Shown here: positions 5,387 through 52,946 of the stretch, piece after piece | How the letters are laid out: every line of letters begins with the position of its first letter | Numbering within the stretch: position 1 is the stretch's first letter | Origin: Cupriavidus malaysiensis | Lineage (GTDB): Bacteria; Pseudomonadota; Gammaproteobacteria; Burkholderiales; Burkholderiaceae | Assembly: GCF_001854325.1 (NCBI RefSeq) | Contig: NZ_CP017756.1 | Span: 62,001 to 126,000 of the forward strand | DNA: 64,000 nt | Direction: 5' to 3' | Translations under genes and position numbers: made by a program | Notes under the pieces: generated by a model | What the model was told of the DNA's origin: nothing | The model's input: only the letters and a program-made list of their open reading frames with translations | Database searches by the model: none

Positions 5387-6691
5387 CTACACCTGCCCGG
5401 AAAGGATGAATCTCAGCAGATCGTCCGCGCTGGGCTCGCCCCATGTCTCAAGCGCCAACCACTGATAGAACGCTGCCTGTGCGGCCTTGGACGGCTTCTT
5501 GCCTGTAACCACACGCTGGCTCGGCACGGTGCACTGATCGTTGTAGCGCCCGATCGCGGCTGTTTGCTCCTCAGGGTCCAACTCCCCAAAATAGCCCTGC
5601 ACTTCGTTGATCCGCGCCGCCACATACTGGTCTTTCGCTTCCGCGGGCGTTCTCGCGGAAACAGGCCTTGAGACTCGTGGGGCTTCCTCGGGCGGCTCCT
5701 CAGCCTCCCTCCCCTTCGCCCAGTTCTCCGTGACAGCCTTGCGAAAATAGGCGGCGACGTTGTCGACCGCCGGGGCGTTCTTCTTGCCCAGCCTCGCCTT
5801 CGTATACGCCACAGCTTGGCGTACACGCTCGGCTCCAAACGAGCGGACAGCTTTCCGCGCCTCTGACAGCGGCACGCCAAGCTTGACCACGCTCTGGATC
5901 AGCTCGAAATCTTCTTCGTCCGGCTTCTCGGCGGCTTCCTTCCGTGCGATCCGAAATTGCAGTTCCGCAACTGTTCGCCCAACCTTGTGCTCGATCAACT
6001 CGATTGTATGGTCGGAAACCGTATTGATTTCGGCGATACACGGTAGCAGAACCGCCCGCTTGAAGATCTTGTACTCCTTGTACTTCGTTTCCCCTTCCTC
6101 CCTTCCCAGGATGAGGTTACGAAAAACCGTGAGAGGGATCTTTGCAGTGATACCGATCCGCTCGTAACGGACAGTGTTTTCCCAAAGCGCAAGTGCGTGT
6201 GCCCGGCGGAAGAGCTTGGCGATGCGCATGTCGATCATCGCGTACCGCTCAGGATTCAACAGTTCTTCGCAGATCTGTGGGGCAAAGGAGTACGAGAGGA
6301 TCGCCCCTGTGATTTTTGCCCCCGCGACCAGAGTCGAGCCTGTCCAGGTCGCGGTTCCATCGCTGTTCAGTTGATCCCAGTCCACCACGGTACGCATCAG
6401 AGACTTTGCCGTCTCCTTGATATAGCCGGTGTCCTTCGTCGTCAGACTGAGCTCGGCCATCATCTCGGGGATGGATATCTGGAACGTGTTCGCTCCATCA
6501 TTGCGCTCGAGTCGGTGCTCTATCGCATTCTTGATCAGCGAGTTGAACAGCCGGCGCTGTTGCAAGGTTAGAGCGCCGCCGACCGGCGACACGTGGATTG
6601 CCTGAACAGCCTTCTTGAATGGCTCTGGGACCTCGACCTGTTGAAACAGCGCGATCTGGGTATTCTTCGGTGCGGCACTGCCTTTGGCCAT
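5387..6691 (-). CDS. rep: Plasmid replication initiator, Rep_3 superfamily
   Basis: A 434-residue initiator from the ATG at 6691 (a GTG at 6742 would add 17 residues but lies inside an iteron-like sequence). Residues about 20-240 show the RepA/RepB winged-helix pair of Rep_3 proteins, including LTLQQRRLFNSLIKNA, the segment ALALWENTVRYERIG and the second wing around KYKEYKIFKRAVLLPCIAEIN. The C-terminal 190 residues are an extension with a hydrophilic linker. It binds iterons and opens the origin. The iteron field lies directly upstream of its start, so autoregulation is likely. Confidence 0.88.
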   Translation of the reverse strand: MAKGSAAPKNTQIALFQQVEVPEPFKKAVQAIHVSPVGGALTLQQRRLFNSLIKNAIEHRLERNDGANTFQISIPEMMAELSLTTKDTGYIKETAKSLMRTVVDWDQLNSDGTATWTGSTLVAGAKITGAILSYSFAPQICEELLNPERYAMIDMRIAKLFRRAHALALWENTVRYERIGITAKIPLTVFRNLILGREEGETKYKEYKIFKRAVLLPCIAEINTVSDHTIELIEHKVGRTVAELQFRIARKEAAEKPDEEDFELIQSVVKLGVPLSEARKAVRSFGAERVRQAVAYTKARLGKKNAPAVDNVAAYFRKAVTENWAKGREAEEPPEEAPRVSRPVSARTPAEAKDQYVAARINEVQGYFGELDPEEQTAAIGRYNDQCTVPSQRVVTGKKPSKAAQAAFYQWLALETWGEPSADDLLRFILSGQV

Positions 6692-6737
6692 GGTGTCGTC
6701 GGTACGCTCGGATTGGTGAAATCTTAGGGTGATGACG

Positions 6738-7604
6738 TTCACCTATCAAGGGGAACTTCGCACCCAGCTGATACTTGGGTCCTGCTCGTTCTCTATACAA
6801 ATCAGCTATTTAGGGCATCGACTGGATGTGAAGTCAGAGTATCTGAACCCCAAACCTTTTCACCTTCGCCACCCAGAAGCCCCAACAGCGTTCACCTTGT
6901 CGCCACTGCAGCCCGCCGTAGGTGAAGCCATTTGGGTAGCTACAGCGCTGACCACCACATTTTGTTATTTACTAGGCACTTTTCAGCAAGACACATCCCG
7001 GATGGCGTTCGACGCAGATGCGCTCGCCCCAATTCTTTTCACCTTGCGGAGCTCGCGGCCGCGCGTGGCGAAGGCAAGGCCAGGTGCCAATGGTGTTCAG
7101 GCCCCAAAGTCCTTCACCTTTCGATCGCCTCAAATCCGTTCACCTTTGCGTTGGCGGCTTGCCTGTACGTCGGAGCAAGACAATCTTCACCCCAAACTTC
7201 TTCACCTTTGACATCCCCCAAAGGTGTTCACCTTTAGCGAGCCTGCTGGTGCAATCGGGCAGAGAGCTACTCCACAGAGCTCTTCCAGACCTGGAATCCC
7301 ATAGGCCGCACCCCAAAACAATTCACCTTTAAGGCCTAGATCGACGGTCCTCAACGGACTTCACCTATACCCCATATCCACAACCGTGTGGACCCAACGG
7401 TTTACACCAATGCCCCATATCCACAGCCCCCTCGCCCCAACCGTTTTCACCTTGCCCCCAGCGGGTTTCACCTTGGGGCGAGAAACTGCTTTAAAAACAA
7501 TGGGTTATGGATGCTAAAGGTATACTTAAAGGGTTTACAGTGTTAACCAAACACTTAAAGGGGCTAGTGTCCTCTCGGACAGCCCCAATTCCGTTCACCT
7601 ATGC
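6738..7604. repeat. oriV: Replication origin iterons (TTCACCT type)
   Basis: About 13 directly repeated sites with core TTCACCTT, most preceded 4-6 bp earlier by CCCCAA. Approximate core positions: 6740 (TTCACCTAT), 6859, 6890, 7038, 7113, 7139, 7200, 7227, 7321, 7360 (TTCACCTAT), 7444, 7468 and 7594 (TTCACCTAT). A weaker TTTACACC copy is near 7401, and an inverted AGGTGAAG at 6920. The field begins in the rep leader and ends in an A+T-rich segment (about 7490-7570). This is the classic layout of an iteron-controlled origin. Confidence 0.85.
7374..7425 (+). other. Pair of DnaA-box-like sites
   Basis: ATATCCACA occurs at 7374-7382 and 7417-7425, one mismatch from the DnaA box TTATCCACA, each inside the same CCCCATATCCACA context. 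They lie within the iteron field and about 65-115 bp before the A+T-rich stretch where unwinding would be expected. Confidence 0.6.
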
Positions 7605-12787: not shown

Positions 12788-14518
12788 CTAGGCTCCAATT
12801 CCGCCCTCGGCCAAAAGCGCTGGAACTTTGCTCTCTGCGAACAACGTTCGCAACAACCGTCCGAAACGGTTCTCTTTCTCGACTCTGACGATGCGCCGGC
12901 ATGCTTCCAAGAAATTCATCCCAGCCTGGCCAAAGTTTTTCTCGTACATTTCGTGCTGTTCGAGAATGTCCAAACTTTTGAGTACGAAAAACTTGAAATC
13001 ACGACCTTTCAACGTGCGCATCGCAGTCTCGAAATCGTCGATCGTAGCCGCTCTCATCGCCGCTTCTTCCCGATGGCCCCATCCGTCGTTCTCAAGAAGG
13101 TGCTTGACGGCATCGACGACGGTCGCACTGTGAATTCGAGCATCGCGCGCATTGTCGATTGCTGCCTTAAGTTTTGGGTGTAGCGGCTGACGGAACGGTG
13201 ATTCCCCAAATTCGGCCTTGTCGGCGATGGTCGCGAAGTGAGCCAACCAACCATCAATCAAAGCTTCTTCAAGTTTGGCACCACCAGGTAGATCGGCCAT
13301 TTGTTTTCCGAGCGCCGTGACAGTGTAGGCGTCAAGGTCGCCGACTCTGGCGATGAGCTTGGCCGCATCAGCTACGAGATCGTTGTCGCAGTCTGTGACG
13401 TCCCAAATGAAACGTTCAAAGAATGCGTGCGCGAGATTTCTAGATTCGGTGCGATTCTCATTGCGTTGGTAGCCTTGGACGATGGTCTCAATCGCCTTTG
13501 CGTCATGCTTTCCGTCGCAAACGAAGGCAACAACCAGTTCTTCAAATTCATCCGAAGAATTGATCCCTAGCTTTGACAGCAGAACTTTCCATGCGGCCGG
13601 CGTTGAGCCCTCGGCTTTCTCCTTTGACGCATCGCCTTCCTGCCCGAGGTAGCGCCTCACAAAGTCGCTAGAACCTCGGTTGTAGCCTGCGACATACTCC
13701 AGAGTCGGCCCGTCCTTGATGGCTTTATTTGCGAGAGCAGAAATGAGCACAATCGAGGGAACAGTTCGTGCCTGTATCGCGAGAGGCATGTCCCCAGTGG
13801 CACCGAGGAGCCGAACCACAAGACGGTAAGCCTGACGGATGACCCGGATATTGGTGATCCCGCACGCGTCCATCGCAGCCCTGGCCGTCGCGCGGTAAGG
13901 GCTTTCCAAGTTCGGAACCGCGATGTCAAACGCCTCCCCAGGTGTCGGCGTGAAACGAAGTTCTTCTTCGACCACCTTCTCTCGGAACGCCGCCCAGAGC
14001 GCGCTGTCGGTAGGTGCGGAGAGCTGGTCCGAGTTGAGAATCAAGAGGAATCGCGTACCAAAATTCTGAGAGTATTCGTCGACGAAGCCCAGGACCTCGT
14101 CAACTGACAACGAGGCGTGCTTGCGCTCGATGTCATCGATGACTACGAATCGGTTACGCAAGGCAACAGGAACTGCTACCAGCGCAAGCTCGTCGAGCGC
14201 CGAAAACCCCTCGTGGACCTTCCTCAAGGCGTCGACGCTGACCTTCCAAGTCTTCATCAGACCTTCGGTCAACGAGCTGCTGTCACCGCCTACTGGGAGC
14301 GCGCTTTGGACCACCTTGAGCTTGAGCTGATTGATATCTTTCAAGCCAAAGAGGGACACGTAGCGCGCGCCTTCGACGATCGGGTCCTGCGACTCTTTGC
14401 GAATCTCGTTCCAGAGGTGGGTTTTGCCGGTGCCCCATGCGCCTGTCAGCGCGATGACTTTTAGGTCGGCGTTGTCGATGAGCGAGATCAACTGCGTTTT
14501 AGATTGTTCGATCGTCAT
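12788..14518 (-). CDS. KAP-family P-loop NTPase
   Basis: From the ATG at 14518 the protein has 576 residues (an upstream GTG/ATG at 14581 would add 21). Walker A is GAWGTGKT (26-33) and Walker B is RFVVIDDIER (123-132), the DD-x-ER form typical of KAP/STAND-like NTPases. The C-terminal half is helical with no recognised effector. Such NTPases are often found in phage-defence or abortive-infection loci; whether this one acts with the 11782 gene is unknown. No membrane insertion segment typical of eukaryotic KAPs is seen. Confidence 0.75.
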   Translation of the reverse strand: MTIEQSKTQLISLIDNADLKVIALTGAWGTGKTHLWNEIRKESQDPIVEGARYVSLFGLKDINQLKLKVVQSALPVGGDSSSLTEGLMKTWKVSVDALRKVHEGFSALDELALVAVPVALRNRFVVIDDIERKHASLSVDEVLGFVDEYSQNFGTRFLLILNSDQLSAPTDSALWAAFREKVVEEELRFTPTPGEAFDIAVPNLESPYRATARAAMDACGITNIRVIRQAYRLVVRLLGATGDMPLAIQARTVPSIVLISALANKAIKDGPTLEYVAGYNRGSSDFVRRYLGQEGDASKEKAEGSTPAAWKVLLSKLGINSSDEFEELVVAFVCDGKHDAKAIETIVQGYQRNENRTESRNLAHAFFERFIWDVTDCDNDLVADAAKLIARVGDLDAYTVTALGKQMADLPGGAKLEEALIDGWLAHFATIADKAEFGESPFRQPLHPKLKAAIDNARDARIHSATVVDAVKHLLENDGWGHREEAAMRAATIDDFETAMRTLKGRDFKFFVLKSLDILEQHEMYEKNFGQAGMNFLEACRRIVRVEKENRFGRLLRTLFAESKVPALLAEGGIGA

Positions 14519-14724
14519 TTGCTTTATTCGGTGCTGAATCCAGCAGGCGGTCCCGCCAGTACGACGTTTGGGTTGCATCACTGGCGCACCCGACCAGCCA
14601 GCTCCTGTGAAGATTGTTCGAGATTCGAGGAGAACGCGTCGCCATATCGCAATTCTAAGTCAGCACCGGGCCACCGCGAGTTTATGGGCCGCTCCGAAGC
14701 AGCCGTTCTCGACCGGCAGCAAAT

Positions 14725-27508: not shown

Positions 27509-28552
27509 ATGACCGCTACCGCCGAATTGCCCCACCTGGACGCGGCCTTGCAAGCCGATGTCGCCGCCCTGCGGTCACACGTCACCGAAACGCGCGCGCT
27601 GTACAAGGAGGTCTGCGGCCTGCTGTTCTTCCGCTATGGCATCACGCCAACCGCCAACAAGCTCTACGGGCTGGTGCGCAAGGGCAGCATGGGCACGCCG
27701 ACCGAGGTGCTGGCGCAGTTCTGGCAGGCATTGCGCGAGAAGACGCGCGTGAAGATCGATCACCCGGACCTGCCGGAGGCGCTCAAGCAGATCGCGGCCG
27801 AGGCGGTGCAGACCATCTGGCAGTCGGCCAACGAAGCCGCGGCGGCCGAGCTGGCCGCCTTGCGCGCCGAGACCCGCCTGCAGGCCGAGGACGCCCGGGC
27901 CGAGCGCGATTTGGCGAAGGCGGCGAGGGCCGCCGCGGAGGAGGAAACCGCTGCCGTGTGCGCGGCGCTGGAGCGGGCAAGGCTCGCCGAATCCGCGCGC
28001 CAGGACGAGCTGGAGGCGGAAAAGCAGGCCCATGCGGCCAGCCGCGCCCGCCACGAGTCCGCGCAGCAGCAGATCGCTGCGCTCGAGCGTCAACTGCTGG
28101 AATTGCGCACGCAGTTCTCACAAGAACTGGAGCAGATGCGTGAGCAGGTCCGGCTCGCCCAGGAGCGCGCGAGCGCGAGCGAACGGCGCGCGCTGCGCGA
28201 GATCGACCAGGAACGCGGTGTCCGCCAGGCCGCCGAGAAGGCGGCGGCCGACCTGCGGGGCGAGCTAGCGGCGCAACAGGGCAGGGCGCAGCAGGCAGCG
28301 CTGGAAGCCGCCGAAGACCGCGCCGCGCTGCAGGCCGAACGCGACGCAGCGGCCAAGGAGGCCGGCGCCTGGAAACAGGCGTGCGCCGAGGCGGAAGCCG
28401 CGCGGCAGGCGCTGCACGTCGAACTGGACGAAGCACGGTGGCGGGCGGAGCGCGAGCGGGCCGAGGCCGTGGCCGCGCGCCGGCTGGCGGCGGGACCCAG
28501 GCGCCCGCCTGCGGTCAAGCGCACCAAGTTCAAGCCTGGCACGATCATCTAG
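27509..28552 (+). CDS. kfrA: KfrA-like plasmid DNA-binding coiled-coil protein
   Basis: A 347-residue protein with an N-terminal HTH-like domain (about 12-100, including LLFFRYGITPTANKLYGLVR) that matches the KfrA plasmid DNA-binding domain, followed by about 220 residues of uninterrupted Ala/Glu/Arg/Gln coiled coil and a basic tail. KfrA proteins bind DNA, autoregulate and help plasmid stability. A fragment of its 3' end recurs at 32153. Confidence 0.85.
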   Translation: MTATAELPHLDAALQADVAALRSHVTETRALYKEVCGLLFFRYGITPTANKLYGLVRKGSMGTPTEVLAQFWQALREKTRVKIDHPDLPEALKQIAAEAVQTIWQSANEAAAAELAALRAETRLQAEDARAERDLAKAARAAAEEETAAVCAALERARLAESARQDELEAEKQAHAASRARHESAQQQIAALERQLLELRTQFSQELEQMREQVRLAQERASASERRALREIDQERGVRQAAEKAAADLRGELAAQQGRAQQAALEAAEDRAALQAERDAAAKEAGAWKQACAEAEAARQALHVELDEARWRAERERAEAVAARRLAAGPRRPPAVKRTKFKPGTII

Positions 28553-28792: not shown

Positions 28793-31477
28793 TCACTTGA
28801 TCCCGTAGATCCTGGCACGCCGGGTGAAGGCCTCGCGTGCCCCCTCCAGGATCTTGCATGCGGCATCCCGGGCATTGGCATCGTCGATCGAGCCACGAGC
28901 CACAATCTTGCTGTGATCACTGTTGCTCTTGAAGACGATCAGTTGTTCGGCATCACCGAGGACAGCAATATTCGCGTTGTGCGTGACGATGATGACCTGC
29001 CTTCGTTCTTTCGCACGACGAAGGACTGGCACAAAAGTGTGGAAGATGAATTCACTGTCCAGGTTATCCTCCGGCTGATCGATGATCAGCGGGCGCTTGC
29101 TGTCCGACGATAGGATCAGTGCGAGCAAAACCGATTGCTGCTGACCAAGCGAGAGCTGGGAAAAATCGCGCTGCACATATCGGACGTTCACCCCCTCCCC
29201 GACGCGTCGTGTCACGGTCAACCTCGGCAGGTCGTCGACATGGCATTGTTCAAGCGCCGCACGAATCGACGGTTCGCTGAGCCTCTCCAGAATTTCTCTG
29301 GCATCAGCATTCGAAAACGGCTGAACATCGTCTTCGATTCTGATTGACGTCAGTGGCGCAGTTTGGGATCTCGCAATCGCGCCGATCAGTCCTGGTACGG
29401 TCAGCTTTTCGACAATGACACGTGCCTTGTAGTGATTTACCGTTCGCCAGCTCAACGCAGATGCGATGATGCCAACCGCCTCTTCGGAAAATCCGCTTTC
29501 CACGTATTGCAATTTCACTTGCAAGTCCGAGAGCACCTCCGCGAGCGCGCGCGATGCCTTGATCGCATAGGCCTGTCGCAGTGCCGCAACCGTTTTGCGT
29601 GCCTGCCACCGCTTCTCAAGGATTGTCCCATACTCGCTACGCAGAGCCTTCAAGTACGGCTCCCACGTTTTGAGGTCTGTTAGCAGTTTCTGCTGCTTCG
29701 TTTCTTCAGCCGTCAGCTTCGTGACGTGCGACATATCTAGCTTGACGCCTTGCGCCTCCAGCGCGACCCGCTTTGCCTCAATCTCTTCGCGAATCGGACG
29801 CTCGTTGGTCATCCATCTGGTAATCGATGACGTCGTCGTGGCGTTGAGTTTCGTATACGCTGCCCCGATGGTGGCCTGCGCCTGCTTTACCGCTGCAGCA
29901 AATTCGTCCAGCGCTAAGACGATCTCTGCCGCCTCGTTACGTCCTGTGACGACGTCACCGGCATCGACAATCGACCGAAGGGCTGCTCCCGTCTCGGCGA
30001 GCGACGCGTCCTCGACCAATTCCTTCAGATCCCCCAGTTTCTCCTTCAGTTGTTCCCGCTTTGCCTTTTCGATTGCCAGGCTGCGTTGCAGCTTGATCAC
30101 TTCAGCGCCCTTTGCGGCCTCGAACAATTTCAACTGCTGCTGCACCACGGTCAATGAACGCTGCGTCTGCGGGACGGCTGCGACGTTCTTCTCTGCCTCC
30201 ACAATCTTGTTACGCTGCGTCTCGAGGTCGCCCCGGAACAGATGCTCCTCCCCGATTGCGTCGTGAACGCCTGTAAAGGTATCAAGGTACTTCATAAGCG
30301 CGAGCGGATCACCCTTCGCCTGCTCGCGAACGCGGGCCGCTTCGCCTTGTCCAAAACAGTCGAGTCCGAATTCGATCGGCCCATCGAGTGGATCATCGAG
30401 ATTTGTCAAATTTTCGCCGATTGCTCTCGACAACGAGTGCTGCTGGCCGGCCTCATCCTGCCAAAACAGGTGCAACTGATGTGGCCATACCTCTGAGTCG
30501 ACGACCTCTGCACCGGATTCGCTGCCTGTCAGGCAGCGCACAGCCTCAAACGTTGTGGATTTCCCGGTTCCACGACCGCCAATAATGCAGTTCAGGTTGC
30601 GGCTGAAATGAATGGTCTGCCCTGTCAGAAAGCCGCCGCCGATCTTCATCCCCAGAATGAACGGCGTCGCGGCCGGTACCTCATCTTCCAGGCGTATCCG
30701 GGAGTCCCCCTCTTCCAGTGCATGGCGCAAACCATCAAACGAAGGGGTCGCCATCTTGTAGCGGGTGAGTTTGCGATCCTGACTGGCGTTGCGGCCAAGA
30801 GCATTCACCGTGTGAGAGTCGGAACTAAGGATGCGCGCCAGATACTGGCGCTCGCCCAGACCCAACCGTTCAATACGCTGCCTACCAATATTCGCACGCA
30901 CCTGATCAGGGTCATCCGGCGCATATCGCACCGGAGACGCCGAACTGCTGAGTTCGATCCCGAGCAAGGCGTCGTGACAGATGATGTCCGTCTTGTGGGG
31001 TGAGCCACCAGGATAGTTAGTTTCCAACCCGTTACCGCCGTCAACGTGAGCGAGAACACAAAAGCCGCCCAAGCCCCGCGCTATATCAAGACATGCGTGC
31101 ATCGAATTACGGCAACGACTGTTGGGAAGTCCGCGATCGGCGAGATCAAGGCGGCCGTGAAACTGGGTTAGCGCTGCCACTGAAGGGAAATAACAGAGCA
31201 AATGTCCTTCGGGTGTGGATAGCTCGACGGCAGGAATAACGAGAACGCCAACGGCGTTCCCTGCCGTCACCGCTGCCTGGACATTCCCGATCTCGTTGTG
31301 GTCGGCAATCGCGATGATTCGCAGGTTCTCCTGCACCGCCGTATCAACGATGGCCTGAGGCGTCATGGCCTTGTCAGTGACATCGTGGGACGTTGGATAG
31401 GAATGGATATGGAGGTCGCCCCGGTAAAAATGCGCGCCGTCAGACTCCACAAGACATTCTTGCAATTTCTCTGCCAT
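28793..31477 (-). CDS. PHP-domain/SMC-like ATPase (Ppl/TrlF-type)
   Basis: From the ATG at 31477 (AAGGGA upstream) the protein has 894 residues. An N-terminal PHP phosphoesterase domain has GDLHIHSYPTSHD (20-32), IADHNEIGN (57-65) and PAVELSTPEGH. An SMC/RecF-like ATPase follows: Walker A GGRGTGKST (300-308), a central coiled coil (about 430-640), signature LSLGQQQ (775-781), Walker B LIIDQPEDNLD (797-807) and H-loop VTHNAN (831-836). Fusions of this layout have been reported as single-gene anti-phage systems (Ppl) and as TrlF-family ATPases. It stands alone as one transcription unit. Confidence 0.85.
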   Translation of the reverse strand: MAEKLQECLVESDGAHFYRGDLHIHSYPTSHDVTDKAMTPQAIVDTAVQENLRIIAIADHNEIGNVQAAVTAGNAVGVLVIPAVELSTPEGHLLCYFPSVAALTQFHGRLDLADRGLPNSRCRNSMHACLDIARGLGGFCVLAHVDGGNGLETNYPGGSPHKTDIICHDALLGIELSSSASPVRYAPDDPDQVRANIGRQRIERLGLGERQYLARILSSDSHTVNALGRNASQDRKLTRYKMATPSFDGLRHALEEGDSRIRLEDEVPAATPFILGMKIGGGFLTGQTIHFSRNLNCIIGGRGTGKSTTFEAVRCLTGSESGAEVVDSEVWPHQLHLFWQDEAGQQHSLSRAIGENLTNLDDPLDGPIEFGLDCFGQGEAARVREQAKGDPLALMKYLDTFTGVHDAIGEEHLFRGDLETQRNKIVEAEKNVAAVPQTQRSLTVVQQQLKLFEAAKGAEVIKLQRSLAIEKAKREQLKEKLGDLKELVEDASLAETGAALRSIVDAGDVVTGRNEAAEIVLALDEFAAAVKQAQATIGAAYTKLNATTTSSITRWMTNERPIREEIEAKRVALEAQGVKLDMSHVTKLTAEETKQQKLLTDLKTWEPYLKALRSEYGTILEKRWQARKTVAALRQAYAIKASRALAEVLSDLQVKLQYVESGFSEEAVGIIASALSWRTVNHYKARVIVEKLTVPGLIGAIARSQTAPLTSIRIEDDVQPFSNADAREILERLSEPSIRAALEQCHVDDLPRLTVTRRVGEGVNVRYVQRDFSQLSLGQQQSVLLALILSSDSKRPLIIDQPEDNLDSEFIFHTFVPVLRRAKERRQVIIVTHNANIAVLGDAEQLIVFKSNSDHSKIVARGSIDDANARDAACKILEGAREAFTRRARIYGIK

Positions 31478-31836
31478 GTTGATTTCCCTTATATGCGGCA
31501 TCGACAGCCCCGTTCTGCGCCGATTGCCTCCATAGTATCGCGCCTGGGTGCGATACTTGCGAGCTGTCTATACCCTGCGCTGGGCAGCGGGCGCGCGAAT
31601 TTTGCAGGCTGACGCGTGCGGCGATACCCGCTTTCGGACTGCTTTAGCCGTTTGAATGTCCGGCCGGCGCTTCCGGCGGATGAGTCATGATGGCCGGACT
31701 CCGCCACTGGTCGGCACCTGGGGCGGGGTCGTGTAAGCTCTGGCTTGCGTGACGGTTCCGCCCTGAGTCGAGTGCGCGACCGACGCGTTACCCACCTGAC
31801 GAAAGCCACAACCCGCCGGAATCCGGACCACCAACC

Positions 31837-38169: not shown

Positions 38170-38823
38170 TCAGTAGGGCGCGGCTGCTTCGGCCCATTGA
38201 TGGTGGATCTGATTCCACATCGCGGGGTTCGGGCCCCTAACCAGCGGGCTTGGGTGCGCCGAATGGAAAAGCCGCAGAGGCTTCGTCGTCAGGATCGCTT
38301 CTGCGCGCTGCGCCTTCCTCCCAACGAGGACAACCGTTCTGAGTGCAGGCAGGAGTTCGAGAAGCCGGTGCAACTCTTGAAGGCCCGCCTTCACTTCGCC
38401 GGCGGCGATGGCGCGCGTGCGGTTCCAGCCTGGCACTGTGTTCCAGAGAACGGTGCGCCGGCGGTCAATATTGGCTTTTCCCATATGCTCGAAGATCGCG
38501 TGAGCAGTGGGATCATTGTTGTCGCGCGAGATGAAGCCGGAACCTTTGTTCTCGGGGGAAGTCTTGGGGCCTGGCTTCTCGAGAAGAAAGAGCAGATCTG
38601 CTTCGATTCCTCCGTCGAGCGGGTCGAAGTCTGGGAACTCCCAGTCGGGGTGCCGCGCCCGTAGCTCGGCGACATACGCGGTGAGCGGAGCGATGTGGTG
38701 AGCATGCAGCAGCTGCCGTCGCGCCTCGACCATGTTTGAGTCCGCTAGCGCTCGTGCGGTGAGGGGGAAGACTTGGCCACCGACGGGATGGACCATTGCT
38801 TGTGTTTGAGTGCCGATGGACAT
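38170..38823 (-). CDS. Uracil-DNA glycosylase superfamily protein
   Basis: The ATG at 38823 is chosen over 38835 because AAGGA precedes it. The 217-residue protein has UDG-fold signatures: LLFLLEKPGPKTSP (motif 1), VLWNTVPGWN, VVLVGRKAQRAEAI and the late HSAHPSPLV (motif 2). Motif 1 lacks the Asp/Asn of canonical UDGs, so it may be a family-4/5-like or non-catalytic member. It is close to an HhH glycosylase-like gene. Confidence 0.7.
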   Translation of the reverse strand: MSIGTQTQAMVHPVGGQVFPLTARALADSNMVEARRQLLHAHHIAPLTAYVAELRARHPDWEFPDFDPLDGGIEADLLFLLEKPGPKTSPENKGSGFISRDNNDPTAHAIFEHMGKANIDRRRTVLWNTVPGWNRTRAIAAGEVKAGLQELHRLLELLPALRTVVLVGRKAQRAEAILTTKPLRLFHSAHPSPLVRGPNPAMWNQIHHQWAEAAAPY

Positions 38824-38903
38824 GATTTCCTTCATAGACTCCCGCCGGCCGAGAGCAAGCTGCGGTGTGGGAGGAGGTCAGAGTACAGACTTCCACGGCG
38901 TAC

Positions 38904-42209: not shown

Positions 42210-42980
42210 CTACATGAGCTCAAACGGCGAAAGCACGCCAGCGAGGCCGCCGTGGCCGTCGTCAACGAGCCACAACGTAGGCTTACCTACGTCGGCCGCA
42301 TTGAGCAATACTTCGACGTTATCGTGAGGGGTAACGACCTGTGCGTTCACCAGTTCGAGCGGACGTTCGTCAAGTCTAGCTGCCTCTTGGATCGACCTAG
42401 CGAGCACGGCTTTTCTCTCACCGTTTCGATGAAGGAATTTTGCCATTGATGCTTCGGGAACCAGCTTCCACCCATCAAGATTGACAGGGAGGAACGAGAA
42501 CGAATGCATGAGCATGAGCTGCCTAGCGTACGCGACAGGTTGCCATGGTTGAACGATAATCGGAGAGCGGACCATATAATCTTCGACCTTCGTCCGCGGA
42601 TGTTGCTGCTCTACCATCAGGGCCTCCTCCAATCCTATGCATAACTCAATCGCTGCTGTCGTTGCGTGACGGGCGTATACACCCGAGTGCATTGCATCGT
42701 TGCGAGCGGCCTGCGCGGTCCTATATAGTGCACCAAACCGAGAGAATAGCTGAGGAAATATACCTGGCATTTCACTCAAGACCACAGACTGTTCGGCAAG
42801 TACCTTGACAGGGTCGAAATATGAACCCAGCGTGCCTTCTTTTCGGGAGAGGCGAAGTCCGATTGCTTCTACCGTGAAACAAATCTCGCCAAACGCCTCG
42901 GCGTCTGCCAATGCTGCGTACCTCGCTGTCCGAAGACGGTCTCTGTAGTGAAGGCGCTCAGGCCATTGAAGCGTGTCCAT
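42210..42980 (-). CDS. HEPN-like/CBS-pair fusion protein
   Basis: A 256-residue protein. The N-terminal half (1-125) is all helical and contains AARNDAMHSGVYA, where R93-x4-H98 fits the RNase motif of HEPN domains. The C-terminal half (about 128-256) has two CBS-like repeats: VEDYMVRSPIIVQPWQPVAY...FSFLPV and LELVNAQVVTPHDNVEVLLN...LWLVDDGHGGLAGVLSP. CBS pairs bind adenosyl nucleotides, so a nucleotide-gated RNase is a reasonable inference. It lies 110 bp downstream of an ADP-ribosyltransferase-like gene on the same strand. Confidence 0.6.
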   Translation of the reverse strand: MDTLQWPERLHYRDRLRTARYAALADAEAFGEICFTVEAIGLRLSRKEGTLGSYFDPVKVLAEQSVVLSEMPGIFPQLFSRFGALYRTAQAARNDAMHSGVYARHATTAAIELCIGLEEALMVEQQHPRTKVEDYMVRSPIIVQPWQPVAYARQLMLMHSFSFLPVNLDGWKLVPEASMAKFLHRNGERKAVLARSIQEAARLDERPLELVNAQVVTPHDNVEVLLNAADVGKPTLWLVDDGHGGLAGVLSPFELM

Positions 42981-43090
42981 CTAAGTTCTTCCGATGCACT
43001 TGATCAAGTGTTTTTGAGAGTATTCCGTGATCAAAGGGCAGAAATATCTCATACTGGATGGGCGTGGCTCTTGGCTCGCCGTGCTTCTGG

Positions 43091-43567
43091 TCAATCCTCC
43101 GGCGTGCAAGGTATTTTCTTGACGACAATCCCTGGCGGAAGATCTCCGCAATCCGTGGCTCTCAGGCTTACCTCCATTTCGTCTGGGAAGTAGGCGTTAT
43201 TGACTTCTCTTTGAGTGACACCGTGGACTGCAAGGAGAGTCTCATCTACAACATAGATGAAGCCATTTGTTCGCTCGCCATCAATCGTCCTTGTCGCGTA
43301 CCAGAGTGCCTTCTCCCGAGATCGGGTGAACGAGAGAAAACAGTTATCGTTCAGTCCAGATTGGATGTGTTGAGATCTTACTGCGTTTTCGTCGGAGGGG
43401 TAGCGCGTTATGGAACCATCGCGGGGAATTCCATTTCCCCCTTGCGTGATTAACAACTTCGAATCACCGCGAGTCATGCTAACCGCACTAAGCCTGCCCT
43501 TTGGCTGCAACCGTCCCTCATTGGCTCGATCGAGCGCGTCGCAGACACCACGATACAACTGTCCCAT
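43091..43567 (-). CDS. ADP-ribosyltransferase-like protein (R-S-E type)
   Basis: A 158-residue protein starting at an ATG with AGAGG upstream. The three ART elements appear in order: LYRGV with Arg6, LSFTRS (78-83) as the S-T-S strand, and PDEMEV with Glu130-x-Glu132. GFIYVVDETLL and GDLPPGIVVKKIP are typical core strands of the fold. Such enzymes transfer ADP-ribose from NAD+ to protein or nucleic acid. It precedes the HEPN-CBS gene. It could be a divergent, non-enzymatic member. Confidence 0.6.
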   Translation of the reverse strand: MGQLYRGVCDALDRANEGRLQPKGRLSAVSMTRGDSKLLITQGGNGIPRDGSITRYPSDENAVRSQHIQSGLNDNCFLSFTRSREKALWYATRTIDGERTNGFIYVVDETLLAVHGVTQREVNNAYFPDEMEVSLRATDCGDLPPGIVVKKIPCTPED

Positions 43568-43663: not shown

Positions 43664-43885
43664 TCAGAATGCCGAAGGCGCGGCACCGACGCGGCGCAGC
43701 ATCGCATGTGCTTCGTCCAGGCCGAACATCGAACGGGCAGGCTGGGGCGCGCCGCGACCGATCGCGACGGAAATGGCCGTGTTGTATGCCGCGATGCGTT
43801 CGCGAAGTAGTGCTTGCAGGCCGGCGACCAGAATCAACCTGTCAGCTTCCTCAAGGAGCGATTGCAAATCGAGTTTGTTTTCCAT
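43664..43885 (-). CDS. Hypothetical small helical protein
   Basis: A 73-residue protein from the ATG at 43885 (MENKLDLQSLLEEADRLILV). Leu/Ala-rich helices suggest a small helical bundle. It is 97 bp upstream of the ART-like gene and might be an accessory or antitoxin-like partner; no family was recognised. Confidence 0.5.
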   Translation of the reverse strand: MENKLDLQSLLEEADRLILVAGLQALLRERIAAYNTAISVAIGRGAPQPARSMFGLDEAHAMLRRVGAAPSAF

Positions 43886-44059
43886 GGGTGTCCTAACAAT
43901 CATGAGACATCGTGATTTGGCTCGGATACACCTCGGTCACGAGTTGATGCATTGCGGTAATTATGGGCCGCAATGACCCGGCCCATTTGGGTATGTGCTC
44001 ATTTGAGGCGACTATCGGGTGGGCCACTGTCGTTACCATGGGCGAGGCACGAGTTTGTC

Positions 44060-48317: not shown

Positions 48318-51300
48318 TCAACAGAAGTCGCGGCTCACCGTGACCAGGTTACCCATCAGGTGGGAAAGGTCCTCGACGCGTTGGGCGATCAGGTGCCTCA
48401 CCTCGCCCTCGCGTTGCCACTGCCCGTAGACCCCAAGCATGGCGGCGCCCAGGATCTCCTTGCGAAAGCGCTCGAACACGTCGGGCCAGATGATCACATT
48501 GACGACCCCGGCTTCGTCCTCTAAGGACAGGAAGACGACCCCGTTCGCCGTGCCCGGGCGCTGGCGCACCGTCACAATGCCGGCGGCGCGCGCGGTCTGG
48601 CGCGACTGGTAGCCAGCCAGAACGTCGGCTGGCACGAAGCGCCGCGCGGCCAGCAGCGGCCGGAGCAGGGCAAGCGGGTGGCGGCGCAGCGTCAACCCCA
48701 TCGCGCGGTAGTCCCCCGCGATCTCCTCGCCTTCCGTGGGAGGCGCCAGGGCGGCAGCTTCCTCCTTCACGTCGGCCGGGCGCAGCAGATCCTTGTCGGG
48801 CACGGCCGCGGCGGCCTGCCACAGCGCCTGCCGCCGCCCGCCGGTGAGCGATGCCAGGGCATTGCCGCCGGCGAGTACCTGCAGGTCGTGACGGTCGAGG
48901 CCAGCACGCCGGGCCAGGTCTGCCGCGCCGGAGAAGGGCCGGATCGCGCGCGCGTCCTCGATGCGCTGAGCGGCCTCGCGGCGCATGCCCCGCAACAGCG
49001 ACAGGCCAAGGCGCACCGCCGGCGCCGCGCCGTCGGCTGGCCGCTCGAGTGCGGAATCCCAGCCGCTTGTGGCCACGTCGGCGGCCAGCACCGTGACCCC
49101 ATGCCGCTTGGCGTCCTGCACCAACTGTGAAGGCGTGTAGAAGCCCATCGGCTGACTGTTGAGCAGCGCGCACAGGAAAGCAGCCGGCTCATGGCACTTC
49201 AGCCAAGCCGAGGCGTAGACCAGGAGGGCGAAGCTGGCCGCGTGGCTCTCCGGGAAGCCGTACTCGCCGAAGCCCTGGATCTGCCGGAAGATACTTTCGG
49301 CGAACTCGAGATCGTAGCCGCGGGCCAGCATGCCGGTGACGATGCGCTCGTGATACTTGCCCAGGCCCCCCTTGCGCTTCCACGCCGCCATGGCGCGACG
49401 CAGCTGGTCGGCCTCGCCGGCGGAGAAGCCGGCCGCCAACATAGCCACCTGCATGACCTGTTCCTGGAAGATCGGCACGCCGAGCGTGCGCGAGAGCGCC
49501 TTCTCCATGTCCGGGCTGGGGTAGGACACCGGCTCAAAGCCCTGCCGGCGGCGCAGGTAGGGGTGCACCATGCCGCCCTGTACCGGGCCTGGCCGCACGA
49601 TCGCCACCTCGATCACCAGGTCGTAGAACGTGCGCGGCCGCAGGCGGGGTAGCATCGACATCTGCGCGCGCGACTCCACCTGGAACACGCCCATGCTGTC
49701 CGCGCGGCACAACATGTCGTAGGTCGCCGGGTCTTCGGGCGGGATGTCTTGCAGCTCGAAGGCCTCGCCGCGCTGCTCGGCCACCAGGTCGAGCGCCCGG
49801 TGGATGGCCGACAGCATGCCCAGGGCCAGCACGTCGACCTTGAGCAGGCCGAGTGCGTCGAGGTCGTCCTTGTCCCACTGAATCACGCTGCGGTCCGCCA
49901 TCGCGGCATTCTCGATCGGTACCAGGCGCGACAGCTTGTCCTTGGCGAAGACCAAGCCTCCCGAATGCTGCGACAGGTGGCGAGGAAAACCGAGCAGCTG
50001 CGTGGCCATGCTGGCCCAGCGCTGCGTGAGTTCCGCTTCCGTGTCGAGCCCGCACTCGGCGAAGCGCCGCATCAGGTCGGCCTTGCCATCGAACCAGTGC
50101 TGCGCCTTGGCGACCAGGTCAACGATCGCTGGGTCCACGCCCAGGGCCTTGCCGGATTCGCGCAGCGCGCCGCGCGGCCGGTAGGTGGACACCGCGGCGG
50201 TTAGTGCTGCGCGATCGCGCCCGTATTTGCGATACAGGTACTGGATCACCTCCTCGCGCCGCTGGTGCTCGAAATCGACGTCGATATCCGGCGGCTCGCC
50301 GCGTTCCTTTGAGATGAAACGTTCGAACAGTAGGTTGCCGCGGGCGGGATCGACCTCGGTGATGCCCAGGCAGTAGCAGACTGCTGAGTTGGCGGCCGAT
50401 CCCCGGCCCTGGCACAGGATGCCCTGTGAGCGCGCGAACTTGACGCAATCGTAGACCGTGAGAAAGTAGGGCTCGTACCGAAGATCCGCGATCAGCGCCA
50501 GCTCGTGCTCCAGTTGCTGCTGGACGGCCAGAGGGATGCCTTGAGGGAACCGGCGGTGGGCGCCCACGTAGGCCTCGTCGCGAAGGTAGTCGGTGGGCGA
50601 GCGGCCGTCCGGTACCAGTTCCTCGGGATACTCGTAGCGCAACTCGTCCAGCGAGAAATTGCACAGATTGGCGATATGGACCGACTCGGTCAGCAGCCGA
50701 TGCGGGTAGAGGTTGGCGAGGCGCAACCGCGAGCGCAGGTGCTGCTCGGCATTCGGCGTCAGGTCGTAGCCGCACTGCGCGATCGGCCGCCCTAAGCGGA
50801 TGGCACCCAGCACATCCAGCAGCGGCTTGCGCGAGCGCACGTGCATGAGCACGTTGCCGGCCGCCACCAGGCGCAGGCGATGGCGGGCCGCAGCCGCCTC
50901 GACGCCGGCGCGGTGGATGTCGTCGAGCGGGCGGTAGAGCAGGTGGAGCGCCATCCAGGCGCGACCGGCAAAGGTCGCCGAGATCCAGACGGCCTGTGCG
51001 TCCAACTGGTCGGCCGGCGCGCAGTAATCGGGCGTGAACAGTACCAGGCAGTCTGGCAGGCCGCGCAAGTGGGAGTAAGGCGCCTCGGGCGCGGCCAGGT
51101 CCCGCATGGTCAGATGGTAGCTGCCCTTGGCGGCCCGGGTGCGCGCCAGCGTGATGAGTTCGCACAGGTTGCCGTAGCCGGCGCGGTTGCGCGCGAGCGC
51201 GACGAAGGAGAGGGCTGGGCTACCGTCGGCATTCTTGAGACGGAAGCTGGCGCCGACCACCAGCTTCAGGCCGTGCTGCTTGGCGACCGTATGGGCGCGC

Positions 51301-51473
51301 ACGATGCCGGCCAGCGAGCATTCGTCGGTGATCGCGAGCGCTTGATAGCCCAGCGCCACGGCGCGCTCCGCCAGCTCTTCCGCCCGCGAGGCGCCGTGCA
51401 GGAAGGAAAAGTTCGAGAGGCAGTGCAGCTCGGCGTAGTCGGGTAGGCCGACGCCGGAAGGTTGGGGCAGCAT
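48318..51473 (-). CDS. dnaE2: Error-prone DNA polymerase DnaE2 (ImuC)
   Basis: A 1051-residue C-family polymerase. An N-terminal PHP domain opens with YAELHCLSNFSFLHGASRAE; the polymerase core contains PDIDVDFEH (about 393-401), and an OB-fold lies near the C-terminus (GVVFLSLEDEAGVVNVIIWP). The length and the absence of the replicative tau-binding tail fit DnaE2. With ImuA and ImuB it forms the damage-inducible translesion mutasome. It starts 9 bp after imuB in the same operon. Confidence 0.95.
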   Translation of the reverse strand: MLPQPSGVGLPDYAELHCLSNFSFLHGASRAEELAERAVALGYQALAITDECSLAGIVRAHTVAKQHGLKLVVGASFRLKNADGSPALSFVALARNRAGYGNLCELITLARTRAAKGSYHLTMRDLAAPEAPYSHLRGLPDCLVLFTPDYCAPADQLDAQAVWISATFAGRAWMALHLLYRPLDDIHRAGVEAAAARHRLRLVAAGNVLMHVRSRKPLLDVLGAIRLGRPIAQCGYDLTPNAEQHLRSRLRLANLYPHRLLTESVHIANLCNFSLDELRYEYPEELVPDGRSPTDYLRDEAYVGAHRRFPQGIPLAVQQQLEHELALIADLRYEPYFLTVYDCVKFARSQGILCQGRGSAANSAVCYCLGITEVDPARGNLLFERFISKERGEPPDIDVDFEHQRREEVIQYLYRKYGRDRAALTAAVSTYRPRGALRESGKALGVDPAIVDLVAKAQHWFDGKADLMRRFAECGLDTEAELTQRWASMATQLLGFPRHLSQHSGGLVFAKDKLSRLVPIENAAMADRSVIQWDKDDLDALGLLKVDVLALGMLSAIHRALDLVAEQRGEAFELQDIPPEDPATYDMLCRADSMGVFQVESRAQMSMLPRLRPRTFYDLVIEVAIVRPGPVQGGMVHPYLRRRQGFEPVSYPSPDMEKALSRTLGVPIFQEQVMQVAMLAAGFSAGEADQLRRAMAAWKRKGGLGKYHERIVTGMLARGYDLEFAESIFRQIQGFGEYGFPESHAASFALLVYASAWLKCHEPAAFLCALLNSQPMGFYTPSQLVQDAKRHGVTVLAADVATSGWDSALERPADGAAPAVRLGLSLLRGMRREAAQRIEDARAIRPFSGAADLARRAGLDRHDLQVLAGGNALASLTGGRRQALWQAAAAVPDKDLLRPADVKEEAAALAPPTEGEEIAGDYRAMGLTLRRHPLALLRPLLAARRFVPADVLAGYQSRQTARAAGIVTVRQRPGTANGVVFLSLEDEAGVVNVIIWPDVFERFRKEILGAAMLGVYGQWQREGEVRHLIAQRVEDLSHLMGNLVTVSRDFC

Positions 51474-51482
51474 GGCGACGCC

Positions 51483-52946
51483 TCAGCCAAAGAGCCCGTG
51501 CAAGTACCAGTGCGCGGCGTCGCCCTCGCGGCTGCCCATGCGCTCCTGGAACACCCAGTAACAGGTGTGGTCCTGGCCCTCGGCAACGTAGTAGTCCCGC
51601 GTCACCACCTCGCCGGCCCACCAGCCGGCCTCGATGCGTTCGGGCGGGGAGACCATGCGCAGCGGCGAGCCGTAGTACGGGCGGTGGTCGCGCTCCAGCA
51701 ACGGAATCGGCTTATCGAGCAGCCAAGCCGGGCGGGGCAATGCCGGCGCAGGCCCGCCCGCGGCCACCTTGGTGCCGGCGGGCACCCAGGTGTTGGCAAC
51801 CTCGGGCCGGTAGTCTGCCTGCAGGGCGGGCTGCAGCACGCGCTCGGCGCCCAGCCGCGCGGTGAGCAGCTCCAACAGCCGGGCATGGTCCTCGGGCGTT
51901 CCGCCTGGCTCCGGGAACAAGCTTTCGCTCGGCGGCGCCAGCGGTTGCGTGTCGACGGCGGCCAGGTGGACCGCAATCATCGGCGCGTCGACAGCCAGCC
52001 GCGCGAGGCGCTCGCGCAGCAGGCGGTTCAGGTGAGCGGCGTGCCAACTCGGCTCGGCCAGCGCTACCTCGACCACGGTCGGCGGGATGGCCTCGCGGCC
52101 GCGCTCGTGCTGCAGCGACACGGCGAAGCGGGTCACGGCCAGGTGCCGCGCGGTGAGCCATCCCACCAGCTGCTCGATCAGGCCGCCGGCGTAGGCGAGG
52201 GTAGCCTCGGCGTGTTCGATGCGGTCGGGCAGTTCCACGCGCGCGGCGAACGTTGGCGGGGCCTCCAGCCAGTCGAATACCTCGGCGGCCTCGCCCAGGG
52301 CGCGGTCCAAAGCCTCATTGATCGCCGCGCCGCAGCGGCGCTGCAGGCCGGCGCGCGGCAGGCGGCGCAGGTCGCCCAGCGTGCGGCAGCCCAGACCGTC
52401 CAGCCAGTCGGCGTGCGGCCGTGCCGCCGGCAGCACCGCGGCGGGAAGGGTTGCCAACTGGCGGCCGAGACCGGCCGGCTTGAGCGCGACGCCGCCGCCG
52501 GCGCGCGCGAGCAGCCAAGCGCCTTGCGCCGTCGGTGCGCAGCCAACCGCCACCGTGTACCCGAGCGCTTCGGCCGTGGCACGCATGCGCGCGCGCAGCC
52601 GGCGCGCACCGCCGAACAGCCGCAGGCTGGCCGACACGTCGACCAGAACGGCATCTTCCTCAGCCTCGACCACGGATGGCGAGAACTGGAGCAGGGCGAG
52701 CGCGAAGGCGCGAAGGCCTTCCGCCTCGCGTGTGGGTGCCCGTTCGAGGAGCACGGTCTGAGGGGCGATGGTCTGCACGCCGCCGCGGCGCATCTGCGCC
52801 CGCACGCCGGCGGCGGCAGCCAGCGCGGAGGCCAGATGGACCCGGTCCTTGTCGAGGACCGCGACGGCCAGCTCAGTGGACCAGCGTGGCCGGAAGACTT
52901 CCAGGCACAGGCGCGGTAGGCGCAGGCAGATCCAAAGGCGATACAT
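51483..52946 (-). CDS. imuB: ImuB, Y-family polymerase-like mutasome protein
   Basis: A 487-residue protein starting MYRLWICLRLPRLCLEVF, typical of ImuB. The Y-family core is recognisable (VDVSASLRLFGGARRLRARM, VAVGCAPTAQGAWLLARAGG, HhH LDGLGCRTLGDLRRLPRAGL) and the C-terminal block GWWAGEVVTRDYYVAEGQD is characteristic. ImuB proteins lack polymerase catalysis and bridge DnaE2 and the clamp. The start lies 74 bp inside imuA, a long overlap. Confidence 0.9.
   Translation of the reverse strand: MYRLWICLRLPRLCLEVFRPRWSTELAVAVLDKDRVHLASALAAAAGVRAQMRRGGVQTIAPQTVLLERAPTREAEGLRAFALALLQFSPSVVEAEEDAVLVDVSASLRLFGGARRLRARMRATAEALGYTVAVGCAPTAQGAWLLARAGGGVALKPAGLGRQLATLPAAVLPAARPHADWLDGLGCRTLGDLRRLPRAGLQRRCGAAINEALDRALGEAAEVFDWLEAPPTFAARVELPDRIEHAEATLAYAGGLIEQLVGWLTARHLAVTRFAVSLQHERGREAIPPTVVEVALAEPSWHAAHLNRLLRERLARLAVDAPMIAVHLAAVDTQPLAPPSESLFPEPGGTPEDHARLLELLTARLGAERVLQPALQADYRPEVANTWVPAGTKVAAGGPAPALPRPAWLLDKPIPLLERDHRPYYGSPLRMVSPPERIEAGWWAGEVVTRDYYVAEGQDHTCYWVFQERMGSREGDAAHWYLHGLFG

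What the first reader, a model, noticed from the sequence alone, without database searches (positions are those of the whole stretch)
42210..43567. Candidate two-gene ADP-ribosyltransferase + HEPN-CBS system
Seen: a 158-residue protein with the full R-S-E series of ARTs (YRG, SFT, ExE as E130-M-E132) followed on the same strand by a 256-residue protein with an R-x4-H motif (RNDAMH, R93/H98) in an all-helical N-terminus and two CBS-like repeats at the C-terminus. Known: HEPN domains are often RNases in toxins and defence, CBS pairs sense adenosyl nucleotides, ARTs use NAD+. Inference: an NAD+- or nucleotide-sensing RNase switch, with the 73-residue protein at 43664 as a possible third part. I know of no described system with this pair.
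Basis: partly seen in the sequence, partly recalled or inferred. Interest (0 to 1): 0.8.

Follow-up and report, generated by a model that had tools for sequence, protein, structure and literature searches.

The report
Nucleotide-gated antiviral RNA-cutting protein
A bacterial plasmid gene encodes a protein predicted to join an RNA-cutting (HEPN) domain to a nucleotide-sensing (CBS) pair, likely an anti-phage defence protein like the recently reported DS-11 but with its two parts in the opposite order, while the ADP-ribosyltransferase gene beside it is probably only a chance neighbour.

The parts
42210..42980 (-). HEPN-CBS protein, 256 aa: predicted HEPN RNase domain (res 1-125) followed by a CBS pair (res 130-256)
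42606..42980 (-). predicted HEPN domain, residues 1-125, main helices 6-25, 27-45, 82-94, 100-121
   Evidence: secondary structure of the model; hhalign to DUF4145 HEPN prob 40, P 2.9e-4, reversed control prob 0.3
42687..42704 (-). R-x4-H motif RNDAMH (R93-N94-D95-A96-M97-H98)
   Evidence: R93, N94, H98 in 57 of 57 aligned sequences, D95 in 56 of 57
42213..42593 (-). CBS pair, residues 130-256, with G248-V-L-S-P-F-E254 near its end
43091..43567 (-). NarE-family ADP-ribosyltransferase, 158 aa, no extra domain; probably not part of the HEPN-CBS function
   Evidence: Pfam NarE 71.6 bits; PDB 2kxi E 1.2e-20; Foldseek 2kxi 1.5e-6 on a model of mean pLDDT 64
43664..43903 (-). 79-aa ORF (73 aa from the second Met); relative of the C-terminal part of a 189-aa protein upstream of HEPN-CBS in Cupriavidus plasmids
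   Evidence: tblastn 54-55% identity in L002, L003, L009 only, among the loci searched; no Pfam hit

Best explanation
The 256-aa protein is likely a self-contained, nucleotide-gated RNase that would act in anti-phage defence, with a predicted N-terminal HEPN nuclease domain joined to a C-terminal CBS pair, and the adjacent NarE-type ADP-ribosyltransferase is probably an unrelated accessory gene. Proposed working: the CBS pairs of two copies would stack into a dimer and bind an adenine nucleotide (identity unknown); a change in that ligand during infection would bring two HEPN domains together so that the paired R93-N94-x3-H98 sites cut RNA and stop phage production. Shown here: the ORFs, the invariant motif, the modelled helices with the motif at the end of helix 3, the CBS-pair fold of the model, the lack of co-occurrence with the ART in the loci held, and the reversed order of motif and CBS relative to four DS-11 family members. 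Inferred: the HEPN fold itself, dimerisation, ligand, RNase activity, defence.
Against: Pfam, PADLOC and PHROGs give no HEPN or defence call for the window protein; hhalign to three other HEPN families is not significant (HepT prob 0.3, RiboL-PSP 3.0, Abi_C 0.5), and in the DUF4145 consensus aligned here the motif Arg is replaced by Gly (GN-x-A-x-H); hmmsearch of the N-terminal profile against PDB sequences found no HEPN chain. The fold list was filled by CBS chains, so the N-terminal fold was barely tested. The motif-to-motif alignment with DS-11 is weak by itself (prob 15.9 to 32.0 over about 20 columns). The defence neighbourhood was read from a selection of neighbours without a control set. 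DS-11's NCBIfam cut-off is missed by far (13.1 bits against 260). No activity was measured.
Confidence: 0.57

Rival explanations
1. The ART and the HEPN-CBS protein form one two-gene system: the ART would consume NAD+ or make an ADP-ribose product that the CBS pair reads to switch on the RNase.
For: Same strand, 110 bp apart, both intact; ARTs in operons with HEPN genes are listed for another HEPN family (pEK499_p136-like, Table 1 of PMC3710099, passage); no terminator-like site between them.
Against: 0 of 37 other HEPN-CBS loci hold the ART; 0 of 6 other ART places hold HEPN-CBS; in two 299-genome family searches ART is in 3 and HEPN-CBS in 5 genomes, sharing only this one.
Confidence: 0.04
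2. The HEPN-CBS protein is a nucleotide-sensing RNase that tunes RNA stability in stress or metabolism, not phage defence.
For: This was the 2013 proposal for HEPN-CBS fusions (PMC3710099, passage); CBS pairs often report cell energy (recalled).
Against: Patchy distribution (5 of 299 family genomes), 13 plasmid records with a match, and restriction or abortive-infection genes beside several copies fit an accessory defence gene better; DS-11 is defensive.
Confidence: 0.22
3. The HEPN-CBS protein is the toxin of a toxin-antitoxin pair, held in check by a small neighbour such as the 73-aa protein.
For: A relative of the 73-aa protein lies upstream in 3 Cupriavidus loci.
Against: No relative of the small neighbour was found in the other 34 of 37 loci and no other neighbour recurs widely.
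Confidence: 0.07
4. The N-terminal domain is not a nuclease; the invariant R-N-D-x-M-H serves binding or dimer contacts in a CBS-regulated scaffold.
For: Only modest profile similarity to HEPN families; the one Pfam HEPN-clan match among 57 members is at E 0.14.
Against: Motif conservation, its helix position, and the near-identical motif in the DS-11 family, where HEPN catalytic residues are needed for defence.
Confidence: 0.1

Closest known systems
DS-11 (NCBIfam NF053863, 'CBS domain-containing anti-phage protein'; DefensePredictor, PMC13092281)
   Same: One protein with a CBS pair and a HEPN domain; near-identical motif (RNDVMH or RNEIMH against RNDAMH) with a Phe 11 residues before the Arg; the CBS parts align (hhalign prob 94.9). 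That this motif is DS-11's HEPN catalytic site is inferred; the passages read do not give its position.
   Different: Order is reversed: in four members over the cut-off (L173-L176) CBS comes first and the motif starts at residues 315-325; here the motif is at 93-98 and CBS follows. 349-362 aa as called here against 256. Score of the window protein 13.1 bits against a cut-off of 260.
HEPN-CBS and HEPN-CBS-HD fusions noted by Anantharaman et al. 2013 (PMC3710099)
   Same: HEPN domain fused to CBS, proposed to respond to nucleotides (passage).
   Different: The example named there is from Pelobacter; its sequence and domain order were not compared here, and the passage reports no experiment.
NarE (PF21641; N. 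meningitidis ADP-ribosyltransferase, PDB 2kxi)
   Same: The window ART matches over almost its whole length; R-S-ExE residues and two Cys that align with Cys of NarE (C76, C140) are kept. That these Cys bind iron in NarE is recalled; only a reference title calling NarE 'iron-containing' was seen.
   Different: 33% identical in the Foldseek alignment; on a Burkholderiales plasmid, with a second distant copy on the chromosome; its target is unknown.

Membership tests
HEPN superfamily (features as in PMC3710099) | R-x4-6-H motif with a polar residue after R | tested here: met
   R93-N94-D-A-M-H98; R, N and H in 57 of 57 aligned sequences
[quoted passage not shown]
   DSSP of the pLDDT 94 model: main helices 6-25, 27-45, 82-94, 100-121, with shorter helices within 51-74 between; secondary structure only, packing not compared
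HEPN superfamily (features as in PMC3710099) | conserved acidic residue in helix 2 (present in many families) | tested here: met
   E38 in 57 of 57, within helix 27-45
HEPN superfamily (features as in PMC3710099) | profile or fold similarity to established HEPN families | tested here: inconclusive
   hhalign DUF4145 prob 40; HepT, RiboL-PSP, Abi_C not significant; fold list filled by CBS chains
HEPN superfamily (features as in PMC3710099) | RNase activity | not testable with these tools
   needs protein
CBS pair (Bateman module) | CBS-pair fold | tested here: met
CBS pair (Bateman module) | adenine nucleotide binding | not testable with these tools
   positions 251 (S 54, T 3 of 57) and 254 (E 49, D 8 of 57) are kept; that this site can bind ribose is recalled
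DS-11 (NF053863) | score over the curated cut-off of 260 bits | tested here: not met
   13.1 bits
DS-11 (NF053863) | CBS pair followed by HEPN | tested here: not met
   reverse order in the window protein; order read from 4 of 4 members fetched
DS-11 (NF053863) | anti-phage activity needing HEPN catalytic and CBS ligand residues | not testable with these tools
   published for DS-11 only
NarE ADP-ribosyltransferase (PF21641) | score over Pfam's gathering cut-off (27 bits) | tested here: met
   71.6 bits, residues 4-135
NarE ADP-ribosyltransferase (PF21641) | R-S-ExE catalytic residues | tested here: met
   R6 9/9, S79 10/10, E130 and E132 9/9 of aligned sequences holding the column
NarE ADP-ribosyltransferase (PF21641) | transferase activity | not testable with these tools
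   needs protein
Two-gene ART + HEPN-CBS system | adjacent co-occurrence in other genomes | tested here: not met
   0 of 37 and 0 of 6; 1 shared genome, its own, in two searches of 299

The most novel reading that the evidence does not exclude
Bacteria have built nucleotide-gated HEPN RNase immunity in two opposite architectures: DS-11 (CBS then HEPN), and this undescribed HEPN-then-CBS family of Burkholderiales, Pseudomonas and Deinococcus, so that reading an adenine-nucleotide alarm by a CBS pair is a recurrent, possibly convergent, way of sensing phage.
Probability: 0.4. Interest if true: 0.65.

Novelty: new variant of a known kind. Interest (0 to 1): 0.45.

Why it matters
DS-11 left open which adenine derivative its CBS pair reads. 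A second family with the same two parts in the opposite order (at least the 120 relatives listed, less the window's own call, and 12 from a search with a Deinococcus member) gives an independent set for finding that ligand and for testing whether the coupling depends on domain order. Among 57 members scanned, Pfam gave no HEPN call over cut-off and NCBIfam no DS-11 call near its cut-off in the tables seen, and PADLOC (2023, older than DS-11) gave none for the 3 members scanned, so genome surveys are likely to miss this family.

Tried and rejected
Rejected: the two-gene ART + HEPN-CBS system. Rejected as a general third part: the 73-aa ORF (3 of 37 loci).

Led nowhere: PHROGs and PADLOC on the window proteins; viral-contig scans with both proteins (173 and 3 pattern matches, no relative confirmed); genome-contig scan with the ART (49 stretches, none confirmed); PDB sequence search with the N-terminal profile (nine chains at E up to 10, best 0.029, mitofusin 1; none named HEPN); VIA-align, in which no HEPN chain is listed among the 50 rows because CBS chains fill the list; hhalign against HepT, RiboL-PSP and Abi_C; an NCBIfam DS-11 search of 274 class genomes, which found 0 over the cut-off although 259 rang weakly, the matches listed falling mainly on the CBS part of the model. 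The ART model is poor (mean pLDDT 64.1, residues 24-74 under 50), so the ART call rests on sequence.

Limits and rows dropped. Of the 706 hits only the best 120 were listed; the others were not seen and may include proteins that share only the CBS part. Alignment A2 has 57 sequences: the window protein, 45 of those 120 (clustered below 72% identity, 225-300 aa) and 11 of the 12 hits of the Deinococcus search (P0137, 209 aa, left out). The 10 ART hits come from a word-based search with 31 candidates; more distant NarE-type genes exist. HEPN comparison sets: DUF4145 12 of 12 loci, HepT 22 of 30, Hpt 29 of 30, RiboL-PSP 7 of 9, Abi_C 8 of 9; the rest were partial, interrupted or too near contig ends, and the scripts assumed 1.5-kb flanks. 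8 of 13 plasmid records with a HEPN-CBS match were fetched. The 37 loci are not all independent: L026 and L045 look like one locus fetched twice, and L002/L003/L009, L039/L040 and L049/L050 are close sets. L024-L027 and the ART loci L010 and L017 have only 1.5-kb flanks, and several others stop at contig ends, so 'none' means none in the DNA held. L017 is a weak ART match (E 9.1e-4 over 55 residues). Neighbours were checked by Pfam for 20 proteins chosen from 17 loci and a few more in L002 and L006, and by annotation for 7 plasmid records.

Full report
What is there. The contig looks like a plasmid: an actin-like partition protein (1253-2284), a Rep_3 initiator (5387-6742) and a KfrA-type protein (27509-28552). 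The two ORFs of the finding are present, on the minus strand, and 110 bp apart. Their G+C (ART 0.522, HEPN-CBS 0.545) is below the window's 0.605, which fits acquired genes.

The 158-aa protein. Pfam assigns it to NarE (PF21641, 71.6 bits, cut-off 27). The only strong solved relative is NarE itself (2kxi, E 1.2e-20), and Foldseek ranks 2kxi first and cholera toxin A1 second on a weak model. R6, S79 and E130-x-E132 are kept in every aligned sequence that holds the column, and C76 (10 of 10) and C140 (8 of 9) align with two Cys of NarE. It has no extra domain. Close relatives are few: the word-based protein search returned 10, one of them the window protein itself, and the Pfam model rings in 4 of 399 order-level genomes, this one included. 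The own chromosome holds a second, distant NarE-type frame (C1:1909427-1909729). What such a protein modifies is unknown.

Is the N-terminus a HEPN domain? The 2013 survey describes HEPN by an R-x4-6-H motif with a polar residue after the Arg, at the end of helix 3, with an insert between helices 2 and 3 and in many families an acidic residue in helix 2 (PMC3710099, passages read). The window protein meets each of these on model and alignment. Profile comparison is suggestive rather than decisive: hhalign joins RNDAMH and helix 4 to DUF4145 HEPN domains (prob 40, P 2.9e-4), against 0.3 for the reversed profile and 0.6 for the Hpt control, but the DUF4145 consensus aligned here has Gly in place of the motif Arg, three other HEPN families are not significant, and Pfam gives one DUF4145 match, at E 0.14, among 57 members. 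I take HEPN as likely.

Not a pair. I tested co-occurrence from both sides. None of 37 other HEPN-CBS loci (8 from plasmid records, 4 from genome searches, 25 from the species-level contigs; not all independent) contains the ART at tblastn E up to 1e-3, and none of 6 other ART places contains HEPN-CBS. In two 299-genome searches of the family, 3 genomes have the ART and 5 have HEPN-CBS; only this genome has both. Apart from HEPN-CBS itself, no protein cluster recurs widely around it: the next reaches 5 of 42 gene sets, 4 of them HEPN-CBS loci. In two annotated Cupriavidus plasmids, two short genes stand between a relative of the 73-aa ORF and HEPN-CBS, where the window has the ART, which fits a swapped accessory gene.

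Stand-alone defence gene. HEPN-CBS copies sit beside an HsdS gene that abuts or overlaps it (L047), an annotated HsdR overlapping by 13 bp (L008), AbiH (L034), a convergent MmeI (L043), and, some 5-8 kb away, a GajA-like ATPase and Shedu (L002, L003). Other neighbours checked had no defence call, such as ProQ (L035), a Sel1-trypsin protein (L041), a diguanylate cyclase (L049) and methyladenine glycosylase (L048). The window's own plasmid carries a PHP-AAA protein matching Ppl (28793-31501, 3.4e-31). These neighbours were read from a selection, without a control, so I treat them as a lead.

Comparison with known systems. NCBIfam's DS11_antiphage model rings weakly in 49 of 57 family members, best E 9.4e-6; in the window protein and in the 6 of 7 other members listed singly in which it rang the match stays in the CBS part. 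DS-11 is a one-protein CBS+HEPN anti-phage system; mutating HEPN catalytic residues or CBS Y157, predicted to touch the adenine of ATP, abolishes defence, and the ligand is unknown (PMC13092281, passages read). I fetched four members over the cut-off (4 of 339 phylum genomes; 0 of 274 class genomes). All four carry the CBS pair first and RNDVMH (three) or RNEIMH (one) starting at residues 315-325. The window family has RNDAMH at 93-98 and CBS after it. hhalign aligns the CBS parts (prob 94.9) and, separately, the motif helix (prob 15.9 with the whole profile, 32.0 with the N-terminus alone, 20 columns), with the same Phe-x10-Arg spacing. So it works like DS-11 by anatomy but fails DS-11's cut-off and domain order. 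A search for the phrases HEPN-CBS, CBS-HEPN, HEPN and CBS, CBS and HEPN found only the DS-11 paper; no description of the reversed family appeared in that listing or in those.

Verdict. Observation confirmed; two-gene system not supported; the HEPN-CBS protein is likely a nucleotide-gated RNase defence protein of a new architecture.

Noticed in passing
G000:C1:1909427-1909729 (L014, L021): A second NarE-family frame on another contig of the genome (C1, 4.38 Mb; E 1.9e-14), without HEPN-CBS beside it.
   Followed up: partly
window 28793-31501 (-): PHP-AAA/SMC protein, 902 aa, matching PADLOC Ppl at 3.4e-31: a probable anti-phage gene on the same plasmid.
   Followed up: no
window 12788-14581 (-): KAP-type P-loop protein matching PADLOC candidate PDC-S49 at 7.8e-21.
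   Followed up: no
window 48318-52946 (-): Plasmid-borne DNA polymerase III alpha-type gene next to an ImpB/MucB-type gene; the B. glumae plasmid L004 has a similar annotated error-prone polymerase close to its own HEPN-CBS copies.
   Followed up: partly
L004 7992-8768 and 12244-13023: B. glumae plasmid p86s5p carries two HEPN-CBS genes about 4 kb apart, 68% and 65% identical to the window protein.
   Followed up: no
window 42213-42632 (-): The protein database seems to hold this gene as a 140-aa call (P0082) that begins at residue 117 and so loses the predicted HEPN domain; the full 256-aa frame is open and conserved.
   Followed up: yes
L018 10226-11048: In the one close ART relative read (probably Pandoraea captiosa), an 89-aa ORF starts 10 bp after the ART gene; it has not been tested as an immunity gene.
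   Followed up: no
window 38170-38835 (-): Uracil-DNA-glycosylase superfamily protein, 41.6 bits.
   Followed up: no
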